Part shown: piece after piece, positions 10,837-41,610 of the stretch | Position numbering within the stretch: the stretch's first letter is position 1 | Layout of the letters: each line of letters opens with the position of its first letter | Assembly: GCA_949130485.1 (NCBI GenBank) | Contig: OX422192.1 | Span: 4,410,085 to 4,474,084, forward strand | DNA length: 64,000 nucleotides | DNA from: Agelas oroides | Lineage: Eukaryota; Porifera; Demospongiae; Agelasida; Agelasidae | Reading direction: 5' to 3' | Notes under the pieces: model-generated | Told to the model about the DNA's origin: nothing | Database searches by the model: none | Seen by the model: the letters and a program-made list of their open reading frames with translations, nothing else | Made by a program: the position numbers and the translations under genes

Positions 10837-11147
10837 TTAGTGAAGGGCAGTTTTCACCTTTTTGGCAAGTTCTGATTGGTCAATATCCTCAAGGAGTTCA
10901 ATCAGAACCTCCCAGGTGGCCTCCCTTCCTTTGCCTTTCAACCAGGTTATAAACATCTCCCGGCAGCATGTAACAACACCGTTCAGTTGGTTGTTTGCTT
11001 CAATGAGCTCAAGAGTTCGACCTTCAGGGTCAAAATCAAGGAGATCTCCTAGTTCCTTCCACTTAGGTGCCACCGACTCAATGATCTTGATCTTTTCTCC
11101 TCTTATGGACTTCATTATTGTCAGCTGGGCGAGTTTTGGCTTCATAG
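10837..11147 (-). CDS. Death-domain terminal exon
   Basis: 102 codons ending at TAA (10837-10839), preceded on the minus strand by an acceptor (ctcatag, ag at 11149-11148) in phase 1. The protein reads APKWKELGDLLDFD, then CCREMFITWLKGKG and ATWEVLIELLEDIDQSELAKK: a complete six-helix death domain with the typical W-K/R-x-L-G and TW motifs. No start exon was found between 11148 and the kinase stop at 15137. The internal ATG at 11145 could start a death-domain-only protein. Alternatively this is an alternative last exon of the kinase gene to the right, whose linker exon 16837-16879 ends in the same phase 1. Confidence 0.7.
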
Positions 11148-15136: not shown

Positions 15137-16041
15137 CTAACAGTAGCCTTCCCTTCTCCCCAGCATACTGAGGATGTCTTGAAGTCTTGTCTCAAGTTCT
15201 GCAGTGAGGGGTCGTTGTGCAGGGTCATTGTGGAGACACTTCTTGATCAACACAACTACTAAGTGCTTCCCTCCCAAAAGCTGTTCAGCTTTGTCGAAGT
15301 ACTGCTCACGTCTTTTAACCTCTGAACGACCATGCACCTCTTCTTTAGCATCAATGTAGGTTGAAGGGAGGAGTGAATGTACTGGAGACTGGTTGATGGT
15401 GAAAAGTGACAGGTGTCCAAATGAAAAGACATCCAGGCTGGGGCCACACTTTGCACTATCACCTTGGGCCTCAGGAGGCATGTAGTCTGGAGTGCCTGGC
15501 AATGAAGTGAAGATTCCTGGGGTTGCTTCCGGGTCTAGATCCATAAGTCGTGCATTTCCAAAATCTGATATCTTTGCTCTTAGTTCTGAGTCGAGTAGCA
15601 CATTGTTCCCTGTTAAATCTCGATGGATTATTGCAGGTGTGTGGCTGTGAAGGTAGAGCAGCCCATTAGCAACATCGCACAAAATAGAGAGTCTTTTCTC
15701 AAGTGCTGTATTCAAATTGGCGGGTTTAAGAAGGTAGGCATGCAGACTACTCATCAGTCGTTCCATTAGAAGCACTGGCATGGTTTCATTCTCTAGAAAA
15801 CACACTCCTTTACACTGGGCAACGGTTGGGTGGTGAACTTGAGTCATGAGGCTCAGTTCTCCAAACAATTTGTTTTTCAATGTTTGCTGATGCTTGTTTG
15901 ATAAAGTTTTAAACACCTTTCCAGCAACAATCTCACCAGCTGATAATAGTTCTATAACCCGGCCATAGGTTCCATTGCCTAACTCTATTCCTGTTGGCTT
16001 GGCTTTCACTGTGTAACGCTTCAGAGCAGTCCTGAGTGCAG
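15137..16041 (-). CDS. Exon 17, protein kinase domain (TKL/TK-like)
   Basis: About 300 codons to TAG. Gly-rich loop GNGTYGRV, VAGK lysine, glutamate in GELSLM (helix C), catalytic loop HRDLTGNNVLL, metal motif DFGNARL, PEA in the P+1 loop, DVFSFG (helix F Asp) and QRPLTAEL (last conserved Arg). All catalytic residues are present, so an active kinase is likely. HRDLTGNN is intermediate between Ser/Thr (HRDLKPEN) and Tyr (HRDLAARN) loops. It matches the tyrosine-kinase-like group I associate with sponges, so substrate specificity cannot be read. The Val before KAKPTG is in frame with the exon start; translation does not begin here. Confidence 0.9.
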
Positions 16042-19000
16042 CTGTTGGAATAAAAGGGAAAAGAATCCATTTTTTTCACTGTTCCACTCTATTCCTCTCT
16101 TTATACATACACACTATGACACTCGGTCCATATTCAACATCCACTGGTTCACTTGTCGCTTTCACCCCTGCAATTCCTTTGATATCAAAACACACACATA
16201 AATGCACAAGTACGCACACACACTTCACGCTTCATCCCACCATCACTCTCCTTCCTAGGCTCCATCCTGGTCTCACTTGCAAACTTTCCTGTCAGTGCTG
16301 AACCACCACCAAATACTAAATTGTTCATTATATGAAAACTCCATTGTGGTGTACTTCTTGAACAAATGAAAACAAAAACAGATGAGGCCGTTGCACTCAC
16401 ACCCTCAGTTGAATCTGGGTAAGCCAGCATTGAGTTGGAACTGATAAGCAGTTCATGTATATGCACATAATATGTTGATGCACCCTCCACATGGCATCAT
16501 ACAAAGATCATGAGCATACTAGACTACTTCCGAATGAAGAGCTACAAGGTGACTTACTTTTGTCCAGTAGAGGGTTTGACCAAGCTTCTTATTCACCTTA
16601 ACATTACCAGTGTGTGCACACTTGGATCGAGATATACCAACCCTGCATTTTCCCATCTAATTTACAGAAACCTGTAGAATGTGACCTAGGTCTAAACTTC
16701 ATGAGTGTTAATTATACATCTGCAAGACCTATTGAAAATATTCAGACACACACACACACAAATATACAGACATGGTCTCGAACCCAGAACCTCGGGTGGC
16801 TGGGTTTGAGACACACACACACACACACACACTCACCAGTTTCTTGAGACTCTTTCTGCCTTCCAGTGGACTCACTTTCCTGCAGTAATCCATCACATCA
16901 GAACACAAGAATACCCAGTAATAGAGTACAGCTCACTCATTTCTAGCAATTTGATCGGTCAATGCATGGTAACTAAATGTGATAGCAACCTCTCAGAGGT
17001 AATCAGGTCGTGGGAGGTAACTATCAGACCTGATAGTTACCTCCCACAGAATGTCCTGTAAACAATAATAGCAATCATTAACAACAATGATTTGTTCTTA
17101 CAAAACTGCATATTGTTATGGCATACAAACAATAAATACATAGACTAAACAGTGCTGGTGCATGATGGCCATTGAAGTTGAACTTTAACTGTCTTTCCTC
17201 TTCACTTCAAGCCGCTGAATTAAGCAGGTTAGCTAGCCAGTGCAGCAAATTATTTGGCTTTAGGTCCGTTAGTTTACTGACTGAGCCTCTGCAATATTCT
17301 ACTGTGTGTTGGCACCACAACGTAACCAAATAGTGTGTTTTTTCCCAGTACTGCAGACTCACCTTCGCATCAGCTGTGTCTTCGTTGCTGCAAATGGTCT
17401 GGTGGTGTTTCAGTTAATTGCACATAAAGTGGAGCTTGTTAGTGGGTGTGGTGGTTTACAGACTCCAGCAGTACTATCGTGGGTGTGGTATACCTTCAAG
17501 TGCATGCACTCAGCGAGAGACAATGTCGCCATTTGACTTAGTCGCCGTTAATGTCACACTGTTTGATAGCTGAATCACTACAGTTTTGCCAAAAATCCAC
17601 CCTTTTCATCATTTTAAATGATATAGCATCGTATTTATAGCAGTTACTGTACTCTAAGTTAGACACTTTGACCAATGAGACCTACACGATTTATGGAAAC
17701 CTTTGAGCCCCAAGTAACATCCTCGCTATGCTTGGGATGCGACAGCCTCAGGCCCTACGGTTTCTAAATTGTGTAGTTCCCTTTGTCTCTGCGTCTACTA
17801 TATAACACTGATGAGGTCTGAATCATTTACTACATACTCTGGATACATCATTCTATACCCACATTGTTGGTCTGTCCCTTAAGCACCCTTCAGTCCACGC
17901 ATCAGAGACTTCTTGCTCCCCTAGGAGTGTTTACTAATTTCCACACTATGAAGAAGTGGGTGCGTAAACTCACATATCCCCACCTAAACTTTAGTCCAGT
18001 CCCTAAAGCAGCTCCTCACCGCCCACTTCATGCATTAAGAGGAGACATGTTCTCCTCAGTCACCAACAATGATAATTCATGTGTGGAACTCCCACATGTG
18101 AAACAAATGATAGCTGTGATGTGACTTGTGGGTGTTTCTATATTGACACCGCAAATACCCTCAATGGTACAGTCTCACGTACTTACCCTCAACATTTTTG
18201 GATCAGTAGCACTCTGGAGGTATGCCACTACTTCCTCACGCCTGAATTCAGCTGCCACATCCAGGGGAGTGTCCTGATGGAAGCAAAACAACAAATTTAA
18301 CAAAACAACACAGCTACGACAAAGTGACTGGCATATGGGCAAGGTGATATACAGCTAATTGTAACACAGAGTCTCAATCTACGCTGCGCTCTACACATTC
18401 CGTGAATACAGGGCACCTTCGTAGGTACTTGTAAATGAGGGTGAGTGATCTCGAGTTGTTCAATAGGAAGAAATTCAAACAAATGGTATACTATGTATGT
18501 GCAAGTAGCTTAGAATAAGCTGTCTGTAAATTAGCCTAATGTAAATCAAAAACTGGTATTAAGGTTTGCAATAACAGTGTAATGTAAACTGGTGTTAGTA
18601 AATCAAGAAACAAATCGAAATGATGAAACCAAAGGAAAGGGAAGCCACACCCACAAAATTACAGGTTCCATGCAAGTACATCACAGCGAGCGTATTTTCT
18701 CCTGTGCTATGGCTCTCTCCCCAGCATCGGCAGTGTTAGTAAGGCAAGGCTAATGTTATTCTCTGTGTGTTCCTTGCTGTGGCAACTACTTTCTTAAGTA
18801 GTTCTTATCATTTACCTGCATGCTGACAGTTGACATCAGTCTTCAGTAGCTAGTTTTCAGTAGTGGGCTCTCTTTTCTATACACTGAACATGTAGCCACA
18901 TGTGGGTCGAATACCTTGGTAAATACAGAGTATCTACTTGCAGCCTGGGCATGCTCGTTGTGCTGGTTGCATCATGAGTACGGAGTGGCACTTTAATTAG

Positions 19001-22000
19001 AACGCTGCAAAGAACGGGAGCTGTCTGACACCAGTACATAACAATGCCGGGGGTCATCTGTTAGCTAAACTAACTCATTGGTTATTACCGTATTTCCTTG
19101 ATTACTTCCTGTGGGTACTATTAATTTCAGACCGAACTTAACCGCGGGTACAATACGAGGGCTGGAACAAAAGGAGGGCGGGTTCATTTAACTTCAGCCT
19201 TGTCCGTTGTGTGCTCCAGTCGTGTGTGCACCATCAAAATGCACACGACTGACATCTTTATACGGCACGTATATTAGGTATGTACAGCACAGTACAATGC
19301 GTGAGTACAGACCGGCTATATAACCGATCTGAGTCGTCCAAGTCATCCTCGTTGCCACAAATGAGTGTGGCTACGTAACTGAGTAGGAACTATTCCTGGG
19401 CAGGGTTAATTTTCTTCAGCTCAAGTGAGCGCTTGTGTGTGGGGCTAATTCAAGAGCGGGAAGAAATCAAGGAAATACGGTATATGTCGCCACTTTGTGT
19501 ATGATAAGGAGCATAAACCATAGGCTGAAGTTTGCCAGCAAAACAAAGCGCGTGGGGAAGCTACAGGGCTAAACAAATTTCACAATGGCCAGCTCTCGGC
19601 CTCTCCAAGTATCACAATACAATAAAAGTACAAAACAGCAATGTAGATCTATACTCTTACCTACATGAGCTCTAGGTAGCATATGTAGCTACTGCAGGTG
19701 TCAGATGCGCACTGAGATTTGCAAATTTGCAATTATTGTGGGCGTGGCTTTCATTTTACCATTTCGTTTGGTTTTTTGATTTCTGACTAGCACCTAATGT
19801 AAACAGCTTCATACAATGTGGTGAGGTTGTCATACCAACTGCACACTGTGTGGATACATGCACTAATTACTTGTATAATGGTTAATTTTGCTGCCGGGTT
19901 TCCAGGCAAAACTGACCTGTGATTCTAATAATGTATTTAACTCACAAGACTTTTGAAATTAGCTACACAATTGTGGAAATCATATCCTATAATCAACAGT
20001 ACTAATATATTGTTAGTATTACAGACTAATTCACGTACTCCATTACTGTCTTTGATGTTGACGTCTGCTCCCTTCTCTACAAGGACTTGTGCTGTACTCG
20101 CATCACCTCCTATAGCAACCGAGTGTAGGGGAGTCATCTGCCAGGTAAAAACAAATTTGAATAACATCCACTGTGTATGCCTAGTTAGCCTAGTATACAT
20201 GTACACTTTCTTTGTGAAATAGCTGTGCATTGTATGAGTACATGCACTAACTGGAAGTGCTGTGAAGTGGATGATTTTGCCTGACTTTCGTATGTTAATT
20301 AGTAATACAGCTAAAAATCTATTTTGATACCGTAATCTCCTGAAAATACGCTCATGGGCAATGAACTTAAGGAGCTCCTCAAACAGGGGGGTGGGCGTAT
20401 TTTTGGGAGTTGTGATATTTCTCTCGGTAATACACCCATCTCACACACAATTAGTCTAGCCCTATTTATGTACACATGTAGTGATTCTGCAATGCTTTTT
20501 TTGTCATGGGCTTGCTTAAGCAATAGCAGCAAATGGTATTTGCCTTATTTTTAGTCCCTCCTCTTGCACAGTGCAGCTTCTTTGGTCCATACAACGGCTT
20601 GCACTATTACATAAATAGGTGGGCACACTTTCAAGAGAAAGACACCCTTTGCAACAACTTCATTCAAAAAAAGGGGATGGGCTTATTTGCGAGGGTGGGC
20701 CTATTTTTGAGAGATTATGGTACTTGGCTATGCCATGCTGAGGTAGCCTAGTATACACCTTATTGTAAAATTGACCCCTTGAAAGTGACTCAAAATTTTT
20801 TGAAGCTTCTCAACAGTGCACTGTAAACAGCCAACACACACCTTAAGGCTGTGGAATGGTCTACAGGCCTGAGAGGCTACGGATTGTATGAGTGCATCAC
20901 ATAATGCATTGTTTATGCTCACTTGACTTCCAGAAGAACTAATCAGTGATATTAACAAGATAATCAAATGATTATATTTTGGTAACTATCATTAACACTG
21001 GATACTAGTCTCCTTGGAGGTACCTGGGAACAAGGCTAACTCATAACCTAATAAGCGGCATTAATCCTCAGTCAGTACTACACTCTCATTCACTTATGTC
21101 CTCATTATCTTTGGTATAATAATCCACAGCCAGTACTGTATAGTCTTATTCACTTACCCCTTCATAATCTTTACTGTGAATATCACCTCCTGCCTCAATA
21201 AGGCATTGCACTGTGTCAACATGGCCTACTACAGCAGCCCGGTGTAGGGGAGTACGCTGATGGTGAGAAATTTGAACATGGTCCACCATGAATGCCCAAT
21301 TAGCCTCGTATACATGTACAAGGTCAGGAATGTGGTAAATTAGCTGTGCACTGTATGAGTACATGCATTAATTGGAAGTGCTGCATAATGAATGATTTCA
21401 CCTAAACTTTATACGCTAATTAGTGATACAGCTCAAAATAACATAATTGTTTTTGGTACTTGCTATGCCATGCTGAGTTAGCCTAGATACACCTTATTGT
21501 GAAACTGACCTCATGAAAGTGACTCAAAATGTTTTGAAGCTTCTCAACAGTGTACTGTAAACAGCCAACAAACACCTTAAGGCGATGGAATGGACTACAG
21601 GCCTGAGAGGCTATGGATTGTTTGGTTTGTGCTCACTTGATTTCCAGAAGAGGTAATTAGAGATTTTAGCAAGATAATCAAATGATTATATTTTGGTAAC
21701 TAATAATCCGCTACTAACTATCATTACCAGTGGATACCAGTCCTTTGCACCCAAACGATTGTATTTGGTAAATAGTTATACAATGAACACTAAATACCAG
21801 TCCCTTTGTAGGTACCTGGGAACAAGGCTAATTCACAACCTAAGTAACAGCATTAATCCTCAGTCAGTACTACACTCTCATTCACTTATGTGCTCATTAT
21901 CTTTGGTGTAATAATCCAGTCAGTACTGTAGTCTTAGTCACTTACCCCTTCATCATCTTCGCTGTGAATGTCACCTCCTGCTTCTACGAGGTATTGCAGT

Positions 22001-25000
22001 GTGTCAGCATGGCCCATTGCAGCAGCATAGTGTAGGGGAGTACACTAATGGGAAACAACCAAAATTGAACATGGTCAATCCACGTGAATATCCAGTTAGC
22101 CTAGTATACATGCATGTTCTGGAATGTGGTGAAATAGCTGTGCATTGTATGAGTGTATGCATGCACTAATTGAAAGTGCAGCATAATGCGTATGCTAATA
22201 CAGCTGAAAAATAATGTATTTTGATACTTGGCTATGAAATGCTGACTTAGCCTAGTATACAGCTGATTGTGAAATTCACCAAATGAAAACGACTCAAAAT
22301 CTTTTGAAGCTTCCCAACAGTATACTGTAAACAGCCAACACACACCTTAAGGCTGTGGAATGGGCTACAGGCCTGAGAGGCTATGGATGGTTTGAGTGCA
22401 TCACATAATTCATTGTTTATGTGTTGTTTTAGTTTAATGTTCGGATCAGTAGTTTAGTTTTACTTTAATTAGGCTACAGATCCAAATTGTTAGTTTAGTT
22501 TCAGTTTTAATGACTAAATCTAAAAAGGGTTGGTATCAGTCCTTTTAATTGTAGTTAACTACTATTTTTGGTGATTTCTAATTAACAGACTAAGGCAGCG
22601 TCAATTTTAGCTTTAGTTTTAAGGGTTCTATGCCTTATTAAATGCATTTTAGTTTTGGTTTTAGATAACTAAAGCAGCACTGTTTATCCATGCTTGACTT
22701 CCAGGAGAGGTAATTAGTAATTATAATCAAATGATTATATTTTGGTAACTATCATTACCAGTGGATACCAGTCTCTTTGCAAGTACCTGGGAACAAGGCT
22801 AACTCATAACCTAATAAGCAGCATTCATCTTTGGTGTAATAATCCATAGCCAGTACTTACCCGTTATTCACTTACCCCTTCATAATCTTTACTGTGAATG
22901 TCACCTCCTGCCTCAATAAGGCATTGCACTGTGTCAACATGGCCTTTTGCCGCAGCCTGGCATAGAAGAGTTTTCTGATGGGGAGAAGCGACCAAATTTG
23001 AACATGGTCCTCCATGAATCCCCAGTTCACCTAATATACATGTATAAGTACTGGAATATGGTGAAATAACTGTGCGTAGTAGTGTACATGCACTGATTCG
23101 AAGTGCTGCAAAATGGATGATTTTTCCTGACTTTCGTATGCTAATAATTATTAGTAATACAACTCAAAAATAATATATTTTGATACTTGGCTATGCCGTG
23201 CAGAGTTACCTAGTATGCACCTTATTGTAAAATTGACCTCATGAAAGTGACTCAAAATGTCTTGAAGCTTCTCAACAGTGTACTGTAAACAGCCAACACA
23301 CACCTTAAGCCTGTGGAATGGTCTACAGGCCTGAGAGGCTATGGATTGTTTGAGTGCATCACATAACTATGCTCGCTTGATTTCCAGAAGAGGTAATTAG
23401 TGGTTTTAGCAAGATAATCAAATGATTATATTTTGGTAACTATCATTAACACTGGATACCAGTCTCCTTGGAGGTACCTGGGAACAAGGCTAACTCATAA
23501 CCTAATAAGCAGCATTCATCCTCAGTCAGTACTACACTTTCATTCACTTACCCCACCACGATCTTTGCTGTGAATGTCACCTCCCGCTCCAATAAGATAT
23601 TTGATTAAGTCAACATGGCCTCCTCCAGCAGCCCGGTGCAAAGGAGTCATCTGATGAGAAGAAACAAATCTGAACATGGTCAATCCATGAATGTCCAGTT
23701 AGCCTAGTTTACATGTACAAGTTCTCTCGAAATAGCTGTGCATTGTATGAATAATTGCACTAACTGGAAGTGGTACAAAATGTGAAATTGAATAAAAGTT
23801 ATGAAGCTTCCCAACATTGTACTGTAAACAGCCAACACACACCTTAAGGCTGTGGAATGTGTGGGATTGAGAGGCTATGGATTGTTTGAGTGCATTACAT
23901 ATGCATTGTTAATGCTCACTTGACTTCCAGTAGCCTCGTACCCAGGCCGTGTGGGAGGAGAAAGACGGCCTGCTTGCGCATGTGCGGCCGCGGCCAGAAT
24001 ATTTCCATAAAACTGTAACGTTTACATAGATTGTCCACATGCAAAATATACAGACAAGACATTAAAGAGTAGTATACGTACAAAGCTGAAAAATGAGCTA
24101 CAACAAAACAATGCACACTCACGCCATTAAATTTGGCAATCGTAAGTGACTCCAACTACGAGACTAACAAGACAACAGCATAGCTACCCCGCCCTGTACC
24201 CAACTCACTGTGTTTATGGTCAAGCACACAAATAAATGACAGCACCTCGTATTGTACTGACTTACAAAAACTAGTTGGTAGCCGCAAGAAAGCATCTTTG
24301 CCTTCATATAGATAGCGATTATCCTCTACATTCATGGAGTTGAAGGTATTTAAATTGGTAAACGGCTGTATCTTTCGATGATACGGAAATATATTGGACA
24401 TATACGTATTGATTTTACCGACAATTTAGAAACGTAAACTGATTCTCAGGTTTTCTGGGAATGATCGCACATGCGCAAGCAGTCGATACCAGGCCTGTTT
24501 TTCTCCTCCCACGCGGCCTGGGTATGAGGCTAGACTTCCAGAAGAGCTAATTAGTGATGATAATCAAATGATTGTATTTTGGTAACTATCATTACCAGTG
24601 GATACCAGTCTCTTTGCACCCAAATGATTGTATTTTAGTAACTAGCTATACAATGAATACTTAGTTATACAGTGAATACTGAATACCAGTCCCTTTGTAG
24701 GTATCTGGAAATGAGGCTAACTCATAACCTAATTAGCATTGTTAATGGGAGATGGGGAGAAAGAAGTAAACAAATTTCAAGTGTAGTCCACCATGAATAG
24801 TCAGCGTACTATAAAATTGGCTGCAAAATTAGTGTATCGAGAGTGATACTTTAAAGCTTATCAATGCACAATCTTCATACAGATTCTGGAATGTGGCGGA
24901 ATATGTGACACTAGTTGGGCATTATACTAATTGTATACTGAATGATTTTTGATTGTGTGATATCCATGCAGACTAATTAGTGATCGCAATCTGACATTCT

Positions 25001-28000
25001 AGTTTGGGAAATCAGTTACACACCCACCAACAGAGGATACCAGTCAGGTACTTGGGAACAAGGTTAACTCACACTTAAACTAATCCACAGTCAGCAGTAC
25101 AATCTCATTTACTTACCCCAAGTTCATCATCTTTGTCATTGATTTTGGCTCCATTTTCAATGAGGCATTTAACTGTGTCCACATGGCCTTTGTCAGCTGC
25201 CCAGTGTAGGGGAGAACTCTGATGGAGAGAAAGAACAAATATAGCATGGTCCTCTATAAATGTCCAGTTGGCCTAGTATACAGCTGGCTGCCATATTGAA
25301 GGTGACAAGCTACTAAATAATGGCAATGTAAATAATAGTTACATTCCCCAGACGGAGTAGCATGAGCCTGAAGGGCGAATGCTGTTCTGTCTGGGGAATG
25401 TAACTTATTTGTTAGATGTTACCCCTAGCAACCCACTGCCACACCCATAACCACGTCCACCCATTCTACTTTGTGTTATTCAAGTACAAAGTTTTGGTTG
25501 CTAAGCAACATCTAACAAGCATTGATACACAGTATACAGCTGGCTGCCATATTGAAGGTTACAAGCTACTCAATAATGGCAATGTAAGCATTGATACACA
25601 GCATACAGCTGGCTGCCATATTGAAGGTGACAAGCTACTCAATAATGGCAATGTAAATAGTAGTTACATTCCCCAGATGGAGCAGCATGAGCCCGAAGGG
25701 CGAATGCTGTTAAGTCTGGGGAATGTAACTTATTGGTTGGATGTTACCCCTAGCAACCCACTGCCACACCCATTACCACCTGTACCCATTCTACTTCGTG
25801 TTATTTAAGTTCAAAGTTTTGGTTGCTAAGCAACATCCAACAAGAATTGATATATACACACCTTCAGACTAGCTGTGTAGTACATGTACTAATTGAAAAT
25901 ACAGGTTGCTACGTACATCCTGAGCTTGACCTGTTTGCAGGTAACTAGGGCATGTTGTGGAGGATACACAACTGGTCAGCTACATGCCCTAGTAACAAGA
26001 ACATGTAGATTTAATGGACATATAAAGTTCAGTCAATAATAATATCATGTACGTTCATACCAGAAGTTGGGTCAGTAAATTAGGTTAGTAAGAATATCAC
26101 TTACCTTCACATAAAAATATTCAGGATGTTCAGGCACTTTTGACTTGGTGTTGATACCTACAGGAGAATAAGTCATCTGATCACTTCACAACTACTGGTT
26201 TACATTCACACAACACTCAGTGAAGCCGTAATCCCAACATTATTACACCCAAAGATGAAAAAAAAAAAAACCCGTGTAATATAATATAATTAACCCAATA
26301 TAATACACAGGCCAGAGGAAGCATTGGACATCCAATCTGAGTTGATATTCGTTAATGGCATGGTGCACTTGCCCCAGGAATGAAACTTTGGTATACCAAC
26401 AATTCTCCCTTCACCAGCTACACCACCGTCACCCCTCACAGTGACTCGCAAAGCGATTTTCCCGCTTAGGTGATGTCATGCGTTCAATATGCCACGTATA
26501 AAACCATTGCTACGTGTATTGATCATGTTACTGTGCTTCAGGCTAACAATACGTGCGTAACGCACGGGCATAAGCTGGTGAAGGCGTGCCTTGCTATTCA
26601 TGATTGATAAACTTATGTCTGGCTCCTCCCTTGAGGGTAAAAGAAGCCTTATGCTAACATAAAGCCTTTTAGCTAAATACCAGTGAACTGCATTTTGATA
26701 TAAACCAATTGATCAAGTTTTTAGATAAGTAGTGCTTACCTCACATCTTGTCAAATATGATCACACAAGTAGCTTGGTCAACATGTGTTTTGAGCTGTTC
26801 ATAAGTAGCAATGAACTGTGTTTTGTTGAAGCCTACTACCGAAGTTTGTACCCTACCCACCACTGAATTCTAATGTGTTTGAGCCAAGGAAAACCTGCAG
26901 CACTAAACTGCTTATGAGCATCTTGGGGTGCGGTTACTTTGCTCATTACACCCCAAGATGCGAAGTAAATAGTTGGAATAGGGAAGAACTTAACAGCCAT
27001 ACAAGAATATGAAAAAATGCCAGGCCAGAGGAAGGATTGAATCTCAAATCTGAGTGCATATTGGTTAGTGCCATGGTGCACCTACCCCAGGAATGAAAAT
27101 TTGGTTCACCAACAAGCGTGGGAAAGTAGTGCTAAATAAGAAAACAATAAACGGTCTCCGTGTCTGCTTGCTCATTTTCCATTTATTAATACAGGTGTGC
27201 GGTAGTCTACCTCACTGATGTGAAGTAGGTGCTATGTAAACTATTAAAGTGCTAAATAGCCTTATTTACCAGTGCTATGTTGCAGTACGCGGTGGTCTAA
27301 TGGTTAGGATTCAATCCTCAAGATTGGGTAGCACTTTTTGTTCTTTTTTTTTCAATCCCTGTATCACAGCTTATGGGCTTCCTTCCCTTGCAGACAATAG
27401 TAAATACATGGCAGTGCTTTCATATACTTTTTAAAGCCTGTACTAAAGGTTATGTAGTCAACTCATGTCTGGCTCCTCCCTTGAACCCAGCAGTGAGCCA
27501 TTCAGCAACCTGCAGCACTAACCTCTTATGAGCATCTTGGGGTGCGGTTATGCTCGTTAGAACTAATGTTAATATGTAATAGTTATTATCTTGCCCTAGG
27601 GATGCATGGTCATTTCACTTTTGAATGTTACACTATAAGTACTGGCAAATACCGTAATTCGCTTTTATTTCGTCTGTAAATTTCGCCAAAAAATATTCAC
27701 GTAAAATAATTTTCGCACAGACCAAATTGATCGAAAACAATTTTACAAGTCGCATGTGGTGGGCATTAATTGAGAATGATCGCACCGCGTGCTGAAGAGA
27801 TGGCTTGCGAAAAGGAGATGGGTTGTTGTGTTAGAGGCTACGACGTATACAAGAATACATGGGCAGCAGCAATTGGGGAATTACTTGTGTGTAGCAGGGA
27901 GCCAACCAAAGTGGGAAAATTCTCGTAAAATTATATTCGCGTAAAATATTTTCGTACGTTTTCTTTGTACGAAAAGTTTTTTACAACGATAATAAAGCGA

Positions 28001-37000: not shown

Positions 37001-40000
37001 GTGGGACATGGGAGTCCCGCGGACATCCCACAATCCTCTTGGGACTTTGGGATGGGAAGGACAGTGATGTCTCTGGTGGGAAATGGGACTCCTGAGGACA
37101 TCCCATAGTCCCAAGGGGACTTTGGGATGTCCTGACAGGACTCAGGAACAGTGATGCCAAATCTGGACATCACTCCAAGTCCAAGAAGTCTTGAAGGACT
37201 ATGCATGCCAGACTGTGTTCTGACTTAGGCTAACCTGTAACTGCAACAACCAGAGTAGCTGTGTGCTGGTAGGACAAATGGCTCTGTTGTGTGGTACTAC
37301 CCCGTGAAAAGCTCTTCTCTGCAACCATGACAATTTTCTTGAGCTATGAGCACTTCTGTAGGCAGAATAGTTACAAACCTCGTTTTAGCTACATGCCATG
37401 CATGAATGGGCCTTTGTGCTAGGATCTGATGCTTCACTGGTAAGCCTTTAATAGCTACATAACAGTCAATGCTGTAGTGCATTGCTTGCTCACACTCACC
37501 CCACAATGTTGTACATTCCCCTAGTGTGAATCATGATGTAAAAGTAAACCAAGAAAGATGACCAGTAGGTTTAAAACAGGATAGCTGTACAGGGAGAGAA
37601 TGATCACAATGAGTCATACCTTGCTGAAGTTGAGATGAGATAAATGTTGGCTGGTATCCACCACCTCCACTGTACAGATGCTGAGGAGGTGGATAGTGGT
37701 AACCAGATGGTGGGGCAAGTTCTGCAGAAAATGTAATTGCATAGGTTGAATAACGATAGTTTGAATCCCAAGCAATTGGGCCAAGGATTGAGCAGGTATG
37801 ATGTTAACATAGGTTGAGAGGGATGGGTTCTGATTGGCAATCACTTGCAAGTTACACACATTCATCTACTTAGTCGGTCTGGTAGTAGTACATGCATTGT
37901 ATAAGCCCCTAGTAATATCTCTTAATCAACTCACCATCAGTCTTTGTTCTCATGGTTGCACTGGGGACGCTGTGACCCACTGCATTCTCCCCCCTCACCC
38001 GCACAGCATACTCAGTGGAGGGAGTGAGGCCATCCAGAGTTGTGGAGAAGACATTGTGTCTGACCACCTGTGTCTCAAATGAGGATGCAGGATCTGAGGC
38101 TGCATGATACTCCACCAGGTAGGCAGTAATGAGACTGCCCCCATCCTTTTTGCTTGTGTTCCATTGGACAGATATGGAGGTCGAGGATATTGCCTCAACG
38201 GACACAATGGTAGGTGCAGAGGGTGCTAATGTGTGTGTTATAGCAGGCAAGTATTATGGGCAATCTCCCGAAAGTGAGGAGGATGGGTGTTATATAACAA
38301 ATTCTCTAGTAAATACACCCACCACACATGCAATTAGCCCCACAGATGTACACATGCAGTGATTCAGCTAGCCTTTCTTATGATGTGCCTACTTATGCAA
38401 CAACCATAAAGGATATCTCCCTTCAAATTGTTATATAGCTCAGGGCGATTAAGGCATGGGATTTAATTTTTATGTAATGTCAACGTAAATCTCACGTGAC
38501 TAACAGAAGTGGGCTTAACCGTAAAATGCAAGCGAGGTGTAGTGACATTCTACGTCGTGCTCTGCGACTATATCGTTGTGTTACCCTGGTGAATGAACTA
38601 TGCAGCCTGTAAGCTGTATGAAGGACGCAGAAGCGTGGTCTTTATAGGCCGTTCAGCGGTTGAGCGCTTCAACTGCAAGTGACCTTTGTACTCTGTACTG
38701 CCGACCGTGCGTGTGGGAACTGTTTGTGTCGAGGCAGAGCAGAAGAACAACAAACAGAACAATCGGATACGGCTTCAAGGATTGCTTACCATCATAGAAT
38801 ACCAAAACTTTCTGGAAGATGTTAAGCTTGTTGTTAGTGGTGCTTCTGTAGCGTGCGTAGTGTCTCACTGCTAGCCAATATCTATGGTTTTTGGCATCAT
38901 GCAGGAATACTGTAGGAGGCTCCTGGTTCTTCCAGATACTTTCATGTATACTACCTTCAGTTGAATTAGTATAGTAAGTTTGGTAGCGAGCAACCGTCAT
39001 CTTCTGCTCTACCTTCGACAATATATTCTCAAATATTAGCTTAATTGATATTAGTGGTAATTGATAGCCACGCCCACAAATACAGTTTTCATGGTAACGT
39101 ACGTGGAGCTTAGAGCTTCATATATAGCGTACGGTGCCAATTATCGAACGGTACCAATTATCAAACGGAAGAATACGGAAAAATTTCACGCGAATATTGA
39201 GTAGTTTTACGTGAATGTGTAGTAACTGCACGGCATTTAACTTCCGGTCAATGCATAGCGCACTCAGCAAGACAGTTTTACGCTGTTTACCAAGTTTCTT
39301 TAACAAGATGGTGGCAGATGCTTCCGATTTTGCGAAAGAATGGCATTGATTGGAGCTTCCGTTCGTCTAAACCAGTAGAGAAAGTCTAGTAGTTTTGGCA
39401 GCAGCTCTGGGTCTCAGAAACACCCTACTACCTGTGTGTCTGTCCATGGTGATGGTCCATCTTGCTAAGTCTGCCATTTTCTTGTTAGCTGTTAGCTGTT
39501 TATAGCTCTAGTTATTGAATACAGTTGTTTGAACAGTTTCAGTGACTGTATGGCATGCTATATTTGCATGAGTCATGTTTTTATTCGTTCAACTCAGCTC
39601 TTGTGTAATGCCAGGTGCTAGTGTAACAGTATGGTGCAGGAGGCATGGTGGTGTTAAACTTCTTTCAAGCTAAGTGTTCAGAATCTTGTTGCTGTTCGAT
39701 AATTAGTATTAGCACTGTAAAAAATTGGAGGTTAATTTAACCCAGAAAAGGTCATCTCAGTTGCAGTCTGGATTCATCATTCAGTTTAAAATGGGTTACC
39801 TCAGTTGCAGGATCTATACCACCTCCCACTTGTACCACAGTGTAGGGTTACAGTGTTTGTGTACTCAAAGTTCCAATATGGCATGATACTTGCATAAAAG
39901 CACATAAATACTGCCCAAAGGTTAGCCATGAATATTTTTCAGAGTCAATCCAATAATACATGAATATAGTGAGAGTTCCACCCCCTTTTGGCACAAACAT

Positions 40001-41610
40001 GCAATAACAAATTGAATTTCATTTGCAACCCAATTCATTGTTTGCTAGAAACCTGCACTGGACAAGGGGTGTAGCCCTAAACCCTGGCAAAAGTAGGTGA
40101 GCCACTGCCTGGACCTAGATGAATCCAGACTGCAACTGAGCTGACCTTTTCTGGGTTAAATCAACCTCCAATTTTTTACAGTGAGGAAAATGTATGAGCA
40201 GTCGATAATTGGTACCGGTCTTCGATAATTGGCATGATGATATGTCGATATGAAAAAAGTGCTGCTCGTGCATGCTATCACTCGGCTGAAAGGGGTTATT
40301 CAAATCGGCGAGAGCCCACTCTATCGTTTGGTGCAAGAACCAAGTTCCTATGTCGTTCCTGGACTGAGATATGAAGGCAAGTACAAGTCGCGTTCGATAA
40401 TTGGCACTGTACGCTACACAAATCAAGTTTCATCTGGTCTTTCAGATTTCCATACACATTATTGATTTTTATAAATACCTGTGTATCTAGTGTAAAAAAA
40501 AACATGCCTTAGTTCGCCTGAGAGTGCAGCTTATATAATGCTTCTTGTAACATAACTGCATGTACTAGGTGGGCGATACTTTTGAGTGGCCATTAACTCA
40601 AAAATGGGGATTGGTATATTTTCAAGGGTTAGCATATTTTGGGGGATTAGAGCATGCTATTTTATAAACTACTAGAAGATATTACACTTACGTTTTGGTG
40701 CAGGGGGTATTTTTCTTCTCAGTTTTTGTGCTAAAGACTCGTATCTGCCAAGTGCTTGCACAGTGTGTGCCAGTGTCTTCCAGGAGACCTCTGGTGCACT
40801 ATGAAGCCAGAGGTGAAGCACTTCTTGCTTACAACGCTCAGTATCGAGAGGGTAATTCCTCTGAATTTCCCTCAGTGTGGCTGGCCGCAGTCTCAGTTGT
40901 ACCCCCAGTGGGTACCAGTCTTCACCAGCGACCTCACTGAGCTCATTCTCAATCTCCCTCAGCGTCAGACATGTAGACGCAGCTGGTGAGAGAAGATAAG
41001 AGTTGTACAGTTTAGTACAAATGGCACCATTATAAATGGAAACTACAAAAGGAATAAAGCTAAACCTTAAGACTGTCATGAACTGGGCGTGTCACAGATG
41101 TCAAATAAATCATAAAGAGGCCAGTCTGGCATAAAGTGAATGCAGGAGAGAGTCTGACACTCTTGCATATCAAGTTGGTTTTGTACTTGTACTATGTCTG
41201 CCCCCTTACAGCCTCAAGCCTCTTGATGCCAGATTTATCCAGTGGTAGCTACTACAAGTCTAGTAGTACCACAAAATGTTTATGAGTGCTATAAATTATG
41301 AACTGGGTGTGTGGTGGTATTACTCAAGCAATAAAAGACTCATAACGGAGGCGATTGGCAGTCTGACCTTTTGTATGAGCTAGCTGGCGCTGCACACAGA
41401 GTCTACCTGTGTTGACTGTCCTAATTTAGGTCTACGTCTAATAATACACACGGACTGAAGCCAAAGCACCAGCTCAACTTCTACAAAAATTTTGCCTGCA
41501 GCCGTAGAGAAGACTAAATTTCATCTACGTAATGAAATACGGGGATAGGCCTAACATGAACAAGAAACCAATGTCTGAACCAACTCACCCATGCCACCGA
41601 CTTCAGCCAT
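15137..41610 (-). CDS. Death domain - FN3 - ankyrin - kinase gene, 17 exons, 929 aa
   Basis: Joined exons, 5' to 3' on the minus strand: 41610-41589, 40982-40692, 38225-37935, 37721-37620, 30706-30581, 28968-28895, 28595-28397, 26157-26105, 25218-25117, 23650-23552, 22974-22876, 22044-21946, 21256-21158, 20137-20039, 18273-18187, 16879-16837, 16041-15137. All junctions are GT..AG and all phases match (1,1,1,1,1,0,1,0,0,0,0,0,0,0,0,1). The sum is 2790 nt with one terminal TAG. Approximate residues: death domain 8-104, fibronectin III 105-201, Pro/Gly-rich 202-277, linker 278-302, helical 303-368, seven ankyrin repeats 387-614, linker 615-628, kinase 629-929. No signal peptide or membrane segment, so a cytoplasmic death-fold signalling kinase is inferred. 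Expression and the precise exon set are not proven; a further exon in the long introns is possible. Confidence 0.8.
16743..16832. repeat. Two (CA)n microsatellites
   Basis: CA/AC runs at 16744-16762 and 16811-16832. The second abuts the donor of exon 16. Confidence 0.8.
16837..16879 (-). CDS. Exon 16, short polar linker
   Basis: 43 nt: ESESTGRQKESQET, phase 0 in, phase 1 out; acceptor ctgcag, donor gtgagt set in a (CA)n microsatellite. It links the ankyrin cap to the kinase, and its phase also matches the death-domain exon at 11147. Confidence 0.65.
17011..17046. repeat. Perfect palindrome with 17-bp arms
   Basis: TGGGAGGTAACTATCAG, two-base loop, then its exact complement CTGATAGTTACCTCCCA. 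Intronic (intron 15); could be a foldback element remnant. Confidence 0.85.
18187..18273 (-). CDS. Exon 15, C-terminal ankyrin cap
   Basis: 29 codons, phase 0-0: DTPLDVAAEFRREEVVAYLQ then SATDPKMLR. The repeat is shortened after the second helix and lacks the beta-hairpin, as expected for the last repeat of an array. Donor gtaagt. Confidence 0.8.
19087..19482. mobile_element. MITE, TIR TACCGTATTTCCTTGATT
   Basis: Left end TTACCGTATTTCCTTGATTAC and right end AATCAAGGAAATACGGTA are reverse complements about 400 bp apart. Flanks begin and end in TA, as in Tc1/mariner-type elements. In an intron of the kinase gene. Confidence 0.75.
20039..20137 (-). CDS. Exon 14, ankyrin repeat
   Basis: 33 codons, phase 0-0: MTPLHSVAIGGDASTAQVLV then EKGADVNIKDSNG, the most canonical repeat in the array. 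The donor is gtacgt instead of gtaagt. Confidence 0.85.
20330..20720. mobile_element. MITE flanked by TA, TIR CCGTAATCTC
   Basis: Ends CCGTAATCTCCTGAAAATA and TATTTTTGAGAGATTATGG are inverted copies; TA is present at 20328-20329 and 20721-20722. The homologous introns near 22230 and 23180 have the uninterrupted sequence TTTTGATACTTGGCTATG, which is the empty site. A related degenerate copy lies at 38252-38400. Confidence 0.9.
21158..21256 (-). CDS. Exon 13, ankyrin repeat
   Basis: 33 codons, phase 0-0: RTPLHRAAVVGHVDTVQCLI then EAGGDIHSKDYEG. Its last two thirds are almost the same as exon 11 at DNA level, indicating recent unit duplication or gene conversion. Confidence 0.85.
21946..22044 (-). 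CDS. Exon 12, ankyrin repeat
   Basis: 33 codons, phase 0-0: CTPLHYAAAMGHADTLQYLV then EAGGDIHSEDDEG. Acceptor cattag, donor gtaagt. Confidence 0.85.
22426..22680. mobile_element. Small insertion, T-rich, in one ankyrin unit
   Basis: About 250 bp present only in this unit, between CATTGTTTATG and TGTTTATCCATGC, leaving TGTTTAT on both sides. It is rich in TTTAG/CTAAA words, with loosely inverted ends (GTTGTTTTAGTTTA and AACTAAAGCAGC). Non-autonomous DNA element suspected; superfamily unclear. Confidence 0.5.
22876..22974 (-). CDS. Exon 11, ankyrin repeat
   Basis: 33 codons, phase 0-0: KTLLCQAAAKGHVDTVQCLI then EAGGDIHSKDYEG. Very close to exon 13. The usual TPLH has become TLLC, a sign of relaxed constraint in one of the duplicates. 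Confidence 0.85.
23552..23650 (-). CDS. Exon 10, ankyrin repeat
   Basis: 33 codons, phase 0-0: MTPLHRAAGGGHVDLIKYLI then GAGGDIHSKDRGG. It lies in one of the duplicated units whose intron flanks recur at 20.8-25.1 kb. Confidence 0.85.
23931..24532. mobile_element. MULE-like MITE, TIR TAGCCTCGTACCCAGGC, 9-bp TSD
   Basis: Ends TAGCCTCGTACCCAGGCCG and CGGCCTGGGTATGAGGCTA are inverted. GACTTCCAG is duplicated at 23922-23930 and 24533-24541. The related unit near 23385 shows the empty sequence. Nine-bp duplication is typical for Mutator-like elements. No transposase inside. Confidence 0.85.
25117..25218 (-). CDS. Exon 9, ankyrin repeat
   Basis: 34 codons, phase 0-0: SSPLHWAADKGHVDTVKCLI then ENGAKINDKDDELG. 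Canonical ankyrin pattern (TPLHxAAxxGHxDxVxxLIxxGA). Acceptor catcag, donor gtaagt. Confidence 0.85.
25270..25850. repeat. Tandem MITE-like units with nested hairpins
   Basis: A unit beginning near CAGCTGGCTGCCATATTGAA is present at 25282, 25537 and 25604. Two copies contain the hairpin AGTTACATTCCCCAGAC ... GTCTGGGGAATGTAACT (25337-25405 and 25660-25730) followed by a second pair around GTTACCCCTAGCAAC / GTTGCTAAGCAACATC. Non-autonomous element duplicated in tandem inside intron 8. Confidence 0.8.
26105..26157 (-). CDS. Exon 8, short connector
   Basis: INTKSKVPEHPEYFYVK, phase 1 in and phase 0 out, acceptor ctgtag, donor gtaagt. GINTK with exon 7 completes the hairpin of the first ankyrin repeat. 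It bridges to the array of phase 0-0 ankyrin exons. Confidence 0.65.
26308..27345 (-). repeat. tRNA-derived SINE-like copies
   Basis: Copies at 26308-26402 and 27021-27113 share CAGGCCAGAGGAAG...ATGGTGCAC...CCCCAGGAATGAAA. On the minus strand they contain GAGATTCAATCC, close to a pol III B box. A + strand head at 27288-27335 reads GCGGTGGTCTAATGGTTAGG then ATTCAATCC, an A-box/B-box arrangement. Neighbouring blocks (CTGGCTCCTCCCTTGA, GAGCATCTTGGGGTGCGG) are also duplicated. Confidence 0.45.
27653..28008. mobile_element. MITE, TIR TACCGTAATTCGCTTTTATT
   Basis: TACCGTAATTCGCTTTTATT at the left, AATAAAGCGAATTACGGTA at the right, 355 bp apart, with further inner inverted blocks (TTTTCGCAC, CGTAAAAT). 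The flank is TA on both sides, suggesting a Tc1/mariner-type MITE. In intron 7. Confidence 0.85.
28397..28595 (-). CDS. Exon 7, helical segment leading into ankyrin repeats
   Basis: 66 codons: EKLVKTLRESIEQRDVDSFH, LDELEGLLQNSERMKG, LLCYAAYMGSNPVVDTLIQK. The last part (LLCYAAYMGSNPVVDTLIQKG) fits the two helices of an ankyrin repeat, so this is probably the capping repeat. Acceptor ctgtag, donor gtaagg, phase 1 out. Confidence 0.75.
28596..30580 (-). other. Introns 5 and 6 of the kinase gene
   Basis: Apart from exon 6 (28895-28968) I see no coding segment. A small inverted pair GGGCTTCC / GGAAGCCC lies near 29760-29800. Confidence 0.5.
28895..28968 (-). CDS. Exon 6, linker
   Basis: GFVAPYGDLLQNSGVGGCYA then QNDPQ. 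Enters in phase 1 (acceptor ctacag) and leaves in phase 0 at a weak donor (gtgcat). It may be a decayed third copy of the Pro/Gly linker. The weakest exon of the model by splice signal, but the phases on both sides need it or something equivalent. Confidence 0.5.
30581..30706 (-). CDS. Exon 5, Pro/Gly/Tyr-rich linker
   Basis: 42 codons: FAQPSGMLYASGYHIPSPWQ, LYSEGGGQQWPTFTPSQLSQQ. Class 1-1 exon with acceptor tgcag and donor gtattt. Homologous to exon 4 although 6.9 kb of intron with two minisatellites lies between them. Confidence 0.7.
31174..31275. mobile_element. Short TAGCCTCG-family MITE
   Basis: GTTCCCAGGCTTTCCCCATT at the left and AATGGGGGAGGCCTGGGAAC then GAGGCTA at the right are inverted. 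Same end words as the MULE-like elements at 23931 and 41678. Left terminal bases diverged; TSD not seen. Confidence 0.65.
31660..31880. repeat. Pyrimidine-rich tract
   Basis: About 220 bp of C/T-rich + strand (runs such as CCCTCTTCTTTTCTATTCTT). All three + frames are open over part of it simply because it has few A. Intronic; not coding in my view. Confidence 0.6.
32157..32243. repeat. GGACT-type microsatellite, copy 1
   Basis: Degenerate repeats of CTGGACTCTGGACTCTGGAC and ATGGACTGGACT. An almost identical stretch occurs at 34372-34446, both starting after GTACAAAACC. Confidence 0.8.
33150..33770. repeat. Minisatellite A, about 76-bp unit, about 8 copies
   Basis: Unit built of GGGAGTCCTTGGGATGTCC, GGGACTCCCA, GTGGGACAGACAGGACACTG and GGACAACTCCCAAGGG. 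Because the unit length is not a multiple of three and lacks stops in most frames, long open frames appear on both strands. Lies in intron 4. Confidence 0.9.
34372..34446. repeat. GGACT-type microsatellite, copy 2
   Basis: Second copy of the microsatellite at 32157-32243, again preceded by a foldback of the 30871 family. Confidence 0.8.
34709..34790 (+). repeat. tRNA-like SINE head
   Basis: GGGTCCAGTGGCTCAGTAGT then ATAAAGAGCATCTTGCC resembles the 5' half of a tRNA with an A box. No convincing B box follows, so I treat it as a SINE relic and not a tRNA gene. Confidence 0.35.
35060..35510. mobile_element. MITE with about 33-bp TIR
   Basis: GGCTCAGACAGAGGTAGGTC..AAAGACCACT near 35064-35096 is the reverse complement of AGTGGTCTTTGACCCACCTC..TGCCTGAGCTC near 35476-35507. 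A further end fragment (TGACCTGCCTCTGTCTGAGC) lies at 35565-35584. Intron 4. Confidence 0.75.
36095..37135. repeat. Minisatellite B, about 83-bp unit, about 12 copies
   Basis: Unit landmarks: GGGACTTTGGGATGGGAAGG, ACAGCGGGACTGTGATGTCT, CTGGTGGGACATGGGAGTCC, CGAGGACATCCCACAGTCCC. Several units are shortened by 30-40 bp. A 444-codon minus-strand frame and shorter frames in the other phases run through it because the unit lacks stops. It shares GGGAC/GTCCC composition with minisatellite A, 2.3 kb away in the same intron. Confidence 0.9.
37620..37721 (-). CDS. Exon 4, Pro/Gly/Tyr-rich linker
   Basis: 34 codons: LAPPSGYHYPPPQHLYSGGG then a YQPTF...SSQLQQG ending. Class 1-1 exon, acceptor tgcag, donor gtatga. 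It is a clear paralogue of exon 5 (same PSGYH, LYS-GGG and SQL-QQG landmarks), so the linker grew by exon duplication. Low-complexity, probably disordered. Confidence 0.7.
37935..38225 (-). CDS. Exon 3, fibronectin type III domain
   Basis: 97 codons with the FN3 pattern: PSAPTIVSVEAISSTSISVQW (B strand Trp), ITAYLVEY (C strand), TTLDGLTPSTEYAVRVRGEN (E-F strands with the L..L.P.T.Y.V.V signature), VGHSVPS. Both borders are phase 1, the common symmetric class 1-1 of FN3 exons, which favours shuffling. Acceptor attag, donor gtgagt. Confidence 0.85.
38791..39021 (-). CDS. Possible alternative first exon of the kinase gene
   Basis: An ATG-led frame (MSKVEQKMTVARYQTYYTNS ... FQKVLVFYD) on the gene strand inside intron 2. 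It ends at a consensus gtaagc donor in phase 1, the phase needed to enter the FN3 exon at 38225. Spliced so, it would replace the death domain with an unrelated 77-residue N-terminus. I do not recognise the sequence. It could equally be a chance frame or a transposon relic. Confidence 0.3.
39125..40416. mobile_element. 1.3-kb inverted-repeat element with a nested MITE
   Basis: Ends TAGCGTACGGTGCCAATTAT and ATAATTGGCACTGTACGCTA, with more inner copies of the CCAATTATCGAAC word on both sides. Inside it lies another element, 39713-40183, with ends CACTGTAAAAAATTGGAGGT and ACCTCCAATTTTTTACAGTG-like. Both are in intron 2 of the kinase gene. Confidence 0.8.
39713..40183. mobile_element. Nested MITE, TIR CACTGTAAAAAATTGGAGG
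   Basis: Left arm 39713-39780 and right arm 40115-40183 are inverted over about 65 bp (including AACCCAGAAAAGGTCA and GCAGTCTGGATTCATC). About 470 bp in total, no transposase. Confidence 0.85.
40692..40982 (-). CDS. Exon 2, N-terminal death domain
   Basis: 97 codons: TLREIENELSEVAGEDWYPL, GVQLRLRPATLREIQ, CKQEVLHLWLHSAPEVSWK, LAHTVQALGRYESLAQKLRR. These are the six helices of a death domain, with the conserved W and the SWK..L motif. Acceptor ag at 40984-40983, donor gtaagt at 40691-40686. Death domains pair with other death domains to build signalling oligomers, so this is the probable recruitment module of the kinase. Confidence 0.85.
41589..41610 (-). CDS. Exon 1, start codon
   Basis: ATG at 41610-41608 gives MAEVGGM, then the donor gtgagt (41588-41583) in phase 1, which completes an Ala codon with the CT at the head of the death-domain exon. 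Chosen as the start because consensus donor, phase and ATG agree and no upstream coding exon was seen. Confidence 0.65.

What the first reader, a model, noticed from the sequence alone, without database searches (positions are those of the whole stretch)
15137..41610. A 17-exon gene joining death domain, FN3, ankyrin repeats and a kinase
I joined 17 minus-strand exons by hand. Every junction is GT..AG, every phase fits, the sum is exactly 930 codons, and no frameshift occurs. Death domain plus FN3 plus ankyrin plus kinase in one polypeptide is not a standard metazoan architecture I can name (RIPK4/ANKK1 have kinase then ankyrin; IRAK has death domain then kinase). Here the order is death domain, FN3, ankyrin, kinase. 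It would couple a death-fold assembly module to a repeat sensor and a kinase output, a plausible innate-immune or cell-death receptor of a sponge.
Basis: partly seen in the sequence, partly recalled or inferred. Interest (0 to 1): 0.85.

Follow-up and report, generated by a model that had tools for sequence, protein, structure and literature searches.

The report
Death-ankyrin gene with a swapped-in kinase
This animal gene joins a cell-death signalling domain, a fibronectin-like domain, ankyrin repeats and a protein kinase, and it belongs to a gene family whose output part seems to be exchanged like a cassette: a GTPase in some copies, another domain in others, a kinase here.

Summary
The 17-exon model is exactly as described: 2790 nt, 16 introns all GT..AG, 930 codons including the stop (929 aa). 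Pfam finds Death, FN3, ankyrin and kinase. Paralogues in the same genome support the joints: FN3-E7 recurs at nine other loci, Death-FN3 at three of these, E7-x2 at 14 others, and exon 1 is conserved in one. What follows the x2 exon differs over 16 loci: a Roc GTPase segment (6), a second FN3 (7), a kinase (2, one being this gene), nothing found (1). In the x2-kinase intron, sequence down to 16257 matches Roc-COR paralogues and sequence from 16067 matches kinase loci elsewhere, so the exon-shuffling junction lies within about 190 bp. They may give a C-terminal Death (1049 aa), an isoform or a relic, because both donors leading to them are weak. The likely product is a cytosolic Death/ankyrin sensor with kinase output, inferred. 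Parts are known kinds (TNNI3K, DAPK1, IRAK); the combination and the exchangeable slot are a new variant. No transcripts were available.

The parts
41589..41610 (-). exon 1 (start codon, MAEVGGM..., ends in phase 1)
   Evidence: in the C3:1.866 Mb paralogue (L037) a start codon with the same leader and a phase-1 donor sits upstream of the Death exon, flank 77% identical over 198 bp
40692..40982 (-). exon 2, N-terminal Death domain
   Evidence: Death 27.2 bits, cut-off 22.6; family profile matches FADD Death domains at E 4e-4; closest paralogues 80-88%
37935..38225 (-). exon 3, FN3 domain
   Evidence: fn3 E 8.5e-15; eleven other copies at 80-86%
37620..37721 (-). exon 4, Pro/Gly/Tyr-rich linker unit 1
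   Evidence: similar exons before E7 at C21
30581..30706 (-). exon 5, linker unit 2
28895..28968 (-). exon 6, linker unit 3
28397..28595 (-). exon 7 (E7), cap of the ankyrin array
   Evidence: 26 other copies in the genome (5 with stops) plus one partial; dN/dS 0.32-0.53
26105..26157 (-). exon 8
25117..25218 (-). exon 9, ankyrin repeat
23552..23650 (-). exon 10, ankyrin repeat, 99 nt, phase 0-0
   Evidence: exon plus intron units tandemly duplicated
22876..22974 (-). exon 11, ankyrin repeat
21946..22044 (-). exon 12, ankyrin repeat
21158..21256 (-). exon 13, ankyrin repeat
20039..20137 (-). exon 14, ankyrin repeat
18187..18273 (-). exon 15, last ankyrin repeat
   Evidence: region homologous to five C3/C21 loci and to L044
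16837..16879 (-). exon 16 (x2), ESESTGRQ..., phase 0 to 1, left edge of the output slot
   Evidence: same frame in five paralogues; 17 sites in family context in the genome
16067..16257 (-). exon-shuffling junction inside the x2-kinase intron
   Evidence: family homology up to 16257, kinase-locus homology from 16067
15137..16041 (-). exon 17, protein kinase as read to the TAG stop; may instead end at 15169 (phase-1 donor)
   Evidence: (catalytic residues kept); donor scores
14249..14329 (-). family linker exon, phase 1-1, right edge of the output slot; use in the transcript uncertain
   Evidence: found at five other family loci after the variable module
10837..11147 (-). C-terminal Death exon with TAA stop, phase-1 acceptor; use in the transcript uncertain
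   Evidence: Death 34.8 bits; 81% to the Death after Roc-COR at C3 2.0 Mb, 85% to a Death exon 5.9 kb after a kinase at C3 1.34 Mb

Best explanation
One gene of a family built as a front half (Death, FN3, linkers, ankyrin array, x2 exon), an exchangeable output slot bounded by phase-1 introns, and a back end (linker, Death). In this copy a kinase exon occupies the slot that holds a Roc-COR GTPase block or a second FN3 in relatives. It arrived by recombination inside the x2 intron (junction mapped to 16257-16067). Likely working, inferred: the protein is cytosolic; ankyrin repeats bind a partner or ligand; Death domains cluster the protein; clustering lets kinase domains phosphorylate each other and downstream adaptors, as in Death-plus-kinase proteins such as IRAK4 and RIPK1 (recalled). 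Shown: gene structure, family, slot, junction, intact catalytic residues. Inferred: single transcript, location, ligand binding, signalling. Unresolved: whether the kinase is the last exon (929 aa), is spliced on to the second Death (1049 aa), or is skipped in an isoform (758 aa).
For: Order table over the genome from exon searches. x2 is followed by a Roc segment at 6 of 16 loci, a second FN3 at 7 of 16, a kinase at 2 of 16, nothing found at 1 of 16. Second kinase-tailed locus C3:9.117-9.128 Mb with E7, ankyrin exons, x2 (phase-1 donor) and kinase exon (phase-1 acceptor). Junction map. The kinase exon starts at the same phase-1 acceptor in relatives L045 and L046. Linker exon: 6 hits in the genome, this one plus five, each downstream of the slot module in a family locus. 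Back Death exon 81% to that of the C3 2.0 Mb paralogue, whose front Death is 88% to this one. Kinase residues GxGxxG, K41, E61, HRD, N146, DFG kept in 4 of 4; dN/dS 0.24 and 0.35. No membrane-like stretch.
Against: No RNA data. The donor that would carry the kinase on to the back Death scores poorly in this copy (TCA|GTATGC, -3.2; 61% of 4054 minus-strand GTs in the window score at least as well), though L045 and L046 have better ones there (3.9, 5.2); the linker donor is also weak (-1.0). So the back end may be a relic. Only 2 of 16 slot loci hold a kinase; the two kinases are 39% identical, so may be separate captures, and the second locus shows no front Death or FN3. The C21 copies show none in the 26 kb read upstream. 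The linker exon was found at only 6 of 16 loci, and back Death exons are of at least two types. The closest kinase relatives (72-75%) have no E7 or x2 nearby by my probes. Several Roc copies (C3 1.38-1.46 and 8.99 Mb, C9) have no x2 match. The ankyrin exons of the C3 2.0 Mb and C8 copies were not read, and the C3 2.0 Mb E7 is only 55% alike.
Confidence: 0.75

Rival explanations
1. Kinase is terminal: the protein is exactly the reader's 929 aa, and the linker and Death exons downstream are relics of the ancestral Roc-COR-type gene cut off by the kinase's stop.
For: Weak donors at 15169 and 14249; stop codon present; the second kinase-tailed locus (L044) ends in a stop with ATTAAA shortly after it (sequence printed).
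Against: The back Death exon is still open and scores 34.8 bits, and a kinase-Death pair recurs at C3 1.34 Mb. Homology of the kinase exon with L046 ends at 15159, before the stop. No AATAAA or ATTAAA within 800 nt after the stop, only three weaker variants.
Confidence: 0.45
2. Full cassette exchange: kinase exon 16041-15169 is spliced to linker and back Death, giving Death-FN3-ankyrin-kinase-Death, 19 exons, 1049 aa.
For: In frame at every joint; linker and Death exons are where family loci have them; the Roc-COR block is entered in phase 1 and the linker exon after it starts in phase 1 at L032.
Against: Donor score -3.2 and linker donor -1.0; no linker or Death match in the 3.6 kb after the kinase of L046; no AATAAA or ATTAAA within 800 nt after the Death stop either.
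Confidence: 0.3
3. Kinase skipping: the main product goes x2 to linker to Death (758 aa, no kinase), and the kinase is an alternative last exon.
For: All three exon edges are phase 1, so skipping keeps the frame.
Against: No transcript data; the linker donor is weak.
Confidence: 0.15
4. Two or more separate genes: Death/FN3, ankyrin, and kinase parts are neighbours by chance.
For: Large introns (6.9 kb after exon 4) and no transcripts. Eleven ATG-to-GT stretches in the x2-kinase intron could in principle be start exons.
Against: Same order at many loci; the kinase reading frame has no ATG before its glycine loop and needs an upstream exon; only 795 bp separate it from x2.
Confidence: 0.07

Closest known systems
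TNNI3K (cardiac ankyrin-repeat kinase)
   Same: Ankyrin repeats before the kinase; best solved relative of the kinase profile; domain layout read in PMC8232738 passages
   Different: TNNI3K has a coiled coil in front and a serine-rich tail; no Death or FN3 is named in those passages
DAPK1
   Same: Kinase, ankyrin repeats and Death in one protein; its ankyrin-ROC-COR-Death part matches the Roc-COR paralogues here (PMC4917528 passages)
   Different: Its kinase is N-terminal (recalled) with a calmodulin segment; this gene has no Roc match and its kinase follows the ankyrins
IRAK4 / Myddosome kinases
   Same: N-terminal Death and later kinase (recalled); IRAK4 is among the top kinase matches
   Different: No FN3 or ankyrin array in IRAK (recalled)
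Amphimedon Death + TRADD-N proteins (Kaur et al. 2021, PMC8195603, passages read)
   Same: Sponge expansion: Death-like domains in front, variable C-terminus including ankyrin repeats or protein kinase
   Different: Those carry TRADD-N; none was detected by Pfam here
Brown-algal ROCO genes (PMC11378527, abstract read)
   Same: Repeat units each on their own exon, exon shuffling, Roc-COR, proposed immune receptors
   Different: Leucine-rich repeats; no Death and no kinase exchange in the abstract

Membership tests
In-genome Death-FN3-ankyrin-x2 family | Death, FN3, E7, ankyrin array and x2 exons in this order and phase | tested here: met
   other members have all or part of the front
In-genome Death-FN3-ankyrin-x2 family | linker exon and Death exon after the slot | tested here: inconclusive
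   present in the DNA; use in mRNA unknown, donors weak
DAPK1 | N-terminal kinase before the ankyrins | tested here: not met
   kinase at 648-910, ankyrins before it
DAPK1 | Roc-COR between ankyrins and Death | tested here: not met
   37 Roc matches, none on the window's contig
TNNI3K | ankyrin repeats followed by a TKL-like kinase | tested here: met
TNNI3K | coiled coil in front, no Death or FN3 | tested here: not met
   Death and FN3 are in front
IRAK | Death then kinase with no ankyrin or FN3 between (recalled) | tested here: not met
RIPK4/ANKK1 | kinase before ankyrins (recalled, also in the finding) | tested here: not met
Amphimedon TRADD-N proteins | TRADD-N domain | tested here: not met
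   no such Pfam match at E <= 0.001; Pfam may miss divergent TRADD-N
active protein kinase | glycine loop, Lys, Glu, HRD, DFG residues | tested here: met
   4 of 4 sequences
active protein kinase | phosphorylates a substrate | not testable with these tools
   needs an assay

The most novel reading that the evidence does not exclude
The family is a working output-cassette system: a Death-FN3-ankyrin sensor and a terminal Death flank a slot closed by phase-1 introns, into which the genome repeatedly drops a GTPase, an FN3 or a kinase by intron recombination, so that one recognition front can be coupled to different signalling outputs. This window holds a kinase insertion with its junction still readable.
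Probability: 0.35. Interest if true: 0.75.

Novelty: new variant of a known kind. Interest (0 to 1): 0.52.

Why it matters
Exon shuffling in early animals is usually inferred from finished proteins. Here donor, acceptor and junction can be compared in one genome: front half from the family, kinase from elsewhere, join inside one intron. If the slot is used as proposed, it shows how a lineage without adaptive immunity can re-wire one recognition module to different outputs, and it gives a direct test of how Death, ankyrin and kinase modules came to be combined.

Tried and rejected
Separate-gene reading: rejected as main view because of conserved order. An extra exon at 36106-36025: rejected, no acceptor precedes it and it abuts a minisatellite. 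Roc remnant in the window: none on its contig. Structure of the kinase exon from one sequence: useless (mean pLDDT 34.4). Structure of the Death exon: mean pLDDT 66.8; the best PDB matches are FADD Death domains but none is significant (E 0.42 and above). The A1 profile search put an engineered TPR protein above FADD, and another among the FADD rows, with a short match that I take as chance. NCBIfam kinase matches are far below cut-off. Species: not identified. Hit coordinates suggest about 23 large contigs (C23 is 6.76 Mb; C24 onward not measured), and Eunapius fragilis has 23 chromosomes but 218.91 Mb (PMC12616128, abstract start in the listing); Dysidea avara does not fit (575 Mb, PMC12909245 passages). 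Literature: seven searches on the architecture; no title, abstract start or passage that I saw described this domain order. Only open-licence PMC papers were searched, and most listed papers were not opened. From PMC6208332 I saw passages only: sponge Death, ankyrin and kinase genes respond to microbial signals.

Full report
OBSERVATION. Seventeen minus-strand exons between 41610 and 15137 join with 16 GT..AG introns and matching phases into 930 codons including the stop. Pfam finds FN3, ankyrin repeats and a kinase well above cut-off, and Death just below it in the joined protein (22.1 against 22.6 bits) but above it for the exon alone (27.2 bits); Death is the only family matched in the six family Death exons scanned. 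A profile of those six matches FADD Death domains in the PDB at E 4e-4.

IS IT ONE GENE. There are no transcripts, so I used paralogues in the window's own genome (259 Mb, 141 contigs). The E7 exon just before the ankyrins gave 29 rows: this gene's own E7 and E8, one partial copy and 26 other copies, five of these with stop codons. FN3 exons at 80-86% number eleven besides this one. One search placed Death, FN3, E7, x2 and kinase matches on the chromosomes. Its input was 27 of 29 E7 rows, 19 of 150 Death rows (the best 16 plus three weaker C8 rows), the best 20 of 54 FN3 rows, 16 of 17 x2 rows and ten hand-picked of 133 kinase rows. FN3 is followed by E7 within 0.6-2.2 kb at nine other loci, and Death precedes FN3 by 0.4-0.5 kb at three of them; in this gene the gaps are 9.3 and 2.5 kb. 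In the C3:1.866 Mb paralogue the start codon, leader and phase-1 donor of exon 1 are there too, in a flank 77% identical over 198 bp. Compared exons show dN/dS of 0.32-0.53 in ten of ten comparisons (one Death, five FN3, four E7), and the kinase exon 0.24 and 0.35 against L045 and L046, with L044 too distant to give dS. In the two regions read in full, ankyrin exons follow E7 at all five loci. The front is not constant: C21 copies show no Death or FN3 in the 26 kb read upstream.

THE SMALL x2 EXON. The 43-nt exon 16 looks like a weak guess, but five paralogues carry it in the same frame. Its start pattern occurs 17 times in the genome with up to three mismatches, against none for the reversed control; 16 of those lie in family loci and the 17th, on C1, has three mismatches and no neighbour among my probes. 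A second pattern adds one site, at C3:9.125 Mb. That makes 17 sites at 16 loci, since one locus holds two copies 235 bp apart. Fifteen of the 16 have an E7 match within 15 kb upstream (for C3:9.125 Mb).

WHAT FOLLOWS x2. At six loci it is a Roc segment; in two fetched copies the long frame carries COR-A (E 1.3e-10 and 9.8e-12) with a Roc match below cut-off. At seven it is a second FN3 of 65-70% identity. At two it is a kinase: this gene and C3:9.117-9.128 Mb, where E7, ankyrin exons, x2 and kinase follow each other and both edges of the x2-kinase joint are phase 1. For that locus no front FN3 shows within 1.5 kb and no Death or FN3 row lies within 100 kb upstream on its strand. At one, C3:10.276 Mb, my probes found nothing. 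The kinase search scored 131 of 558 candidates, so further weak kinases could be missed. The two kinases are 39% identical, while this one is 72-75% identical to kinase exons at six loci on C8 and C3 that have no E7 or x2 nearby by my probes. So the two may be separate captures. Conversely several Roc copies (C3 1.38-1.46 and 8.99 Mb, C9) have no x2 match.

THE JUNCTION. In the intron between x2 and the kinase, window sequence from x2 down to 16257 matches the introns after x2 of Roc-COR paralogues on C3 and C21, in pieces with gaps between, at 68-93%; one short piece also matches L044. From 16067 down to 15159 it matches the kinase locus L046 at 82%, and from 16021 to 15174 L045 at 80%. Neither set reaches across, and the stretch between matches nothing else fetched. 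The junction is therefore within about 190 bp inside an intron, the classic footprint of exon shuffling. Upstream of the kinase, L045 and L046 have an acceptor at the corresponding place in the same phase.

At 14329-14249 lies an exon, phase 1 to 1, that matches the exon after Roc-COR at C3:1.819 Mb (53% aa, 77% nt). Genome-wide it has five other matches, each downstream of the slot module in a family locus, after FN3 (three) or Roc (two). At 11147-10837 lies a Death exon with a phase-1 acceptor and TAA (34.8 bits). Its relatives include the exon right after the linker of the C3 2.0 Mb paralogue (81%), and one 5.9 kb after a 73-75% kinase exon at C3 1.34 Mb (85%). The closest of all, 87% at C3:9.07 Mb, has no family neighbour upstream that I found. 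It is only 28% like the Death exon after the linker in L032, and at four other Roc-COR loci the Death exon that follows is of the front type, 50-52%, so back ends vary too. Splicing kinase to linker to Death is in frame and gives 1049 aa; skipping the kinase is in frame and gives 758 aa.

AGAINST THAT. With a donor matrix made from 17 donors (the model's 16 and the linker's), the kinase donor scores -3.2, which 61% of 4054 minus-strand GTs in the window match or beat; the linker donor, left out of its own matrix, scores -1.0; the corresponding kinase donors in L045 and L046 score 3.9 and 5.2. No linker or Death match lies in the 3.6 kb after the kinase of L046. No AATAAA or ATTAAA lies within 800 nt after either stop, only weaker variants. 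I cannot decide; my weights are in the rivals.

HOW IT MIGHT WORK. The joined protein has no membrane-like stretch. Catalytic residues are intact. The ankyrin array grew by duplication of exon-plus-intron units (for example 826 bp at 78% and 383 bp at 91%). From knowledge of Death-domain and kinase families I infer: ankyrins bind a partner, Death domains cluster, kinases activate each other. None of this was tested. The kinase specificity is open; it has HRDLTGNN rather than the HRDLKxxN usual in Ser/Thr kinases (recalled), and TNNI3K is described as dual-specific.

KNOWN OR NEW. Ankyrin-then-kinase exists in TNNI3K, and kinase, ankyrin, ROC-COR and Death in DAPK1. Kaur et al. 2021 describe in the sponge Amphimedon 357 TRADD-N proteins, most of whose architectures have Death-like domains in front and a variable C-terminus including ankyrins or kinases (PMC8195603, passages). 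A sea anemone protein with kinase, Death, TIR and Roc/COR is reported in PMC5094078 (passages). So the theme is known. I did not see the exact order, the family, or an exchange slot with a readable junction in the listings and passages of my seven architecture searches, and I rate it a new variant of a known kind.

Noticed in passing
window 33150-33731 and 36136-37129: Minisatellite arrays (units of 45-165 bp) in the 6.9 kb intron after exon 4; the long open frames there, up to 447 aa, are repeat artefacts.
   Followed up: yes
window 4293-5393, + strand: Open frame with kelch repeats (Kelch_1 E 5e-15), a neighbouring gene on the other strand.
   Followed up: partly
window 62353-62982, - strand: MULE/ZSWIM-type transposase fragment.
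   Followed up: no
G000 C3:1984642 and C3:1984877: Two perfect x2 starts 235 bp apart in one locus, perhaps a small tandem duplication.
   Followed up: no
whole genome: 150 Death-exon matches among 150 scored of 870 first-look candidates, and 133 matches to this kinase from 131 scored of 558 candidates: very large expansions, counts are lower bounds.
   Followed up: partly
window 13.5-12.0 kb: Stretches about 81% identical to pieces of L041 and L026, likely dispersed repeats.
   Followed up: no
C3:1341136-1348211: Kinase exon pieces (73-75%) followed by a Death exon (85%) on the same strand without E7 or x2 nearby: perhaps the kind of locus the kinase came from. Its DNA could not be fetched.
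   Followed up: partly
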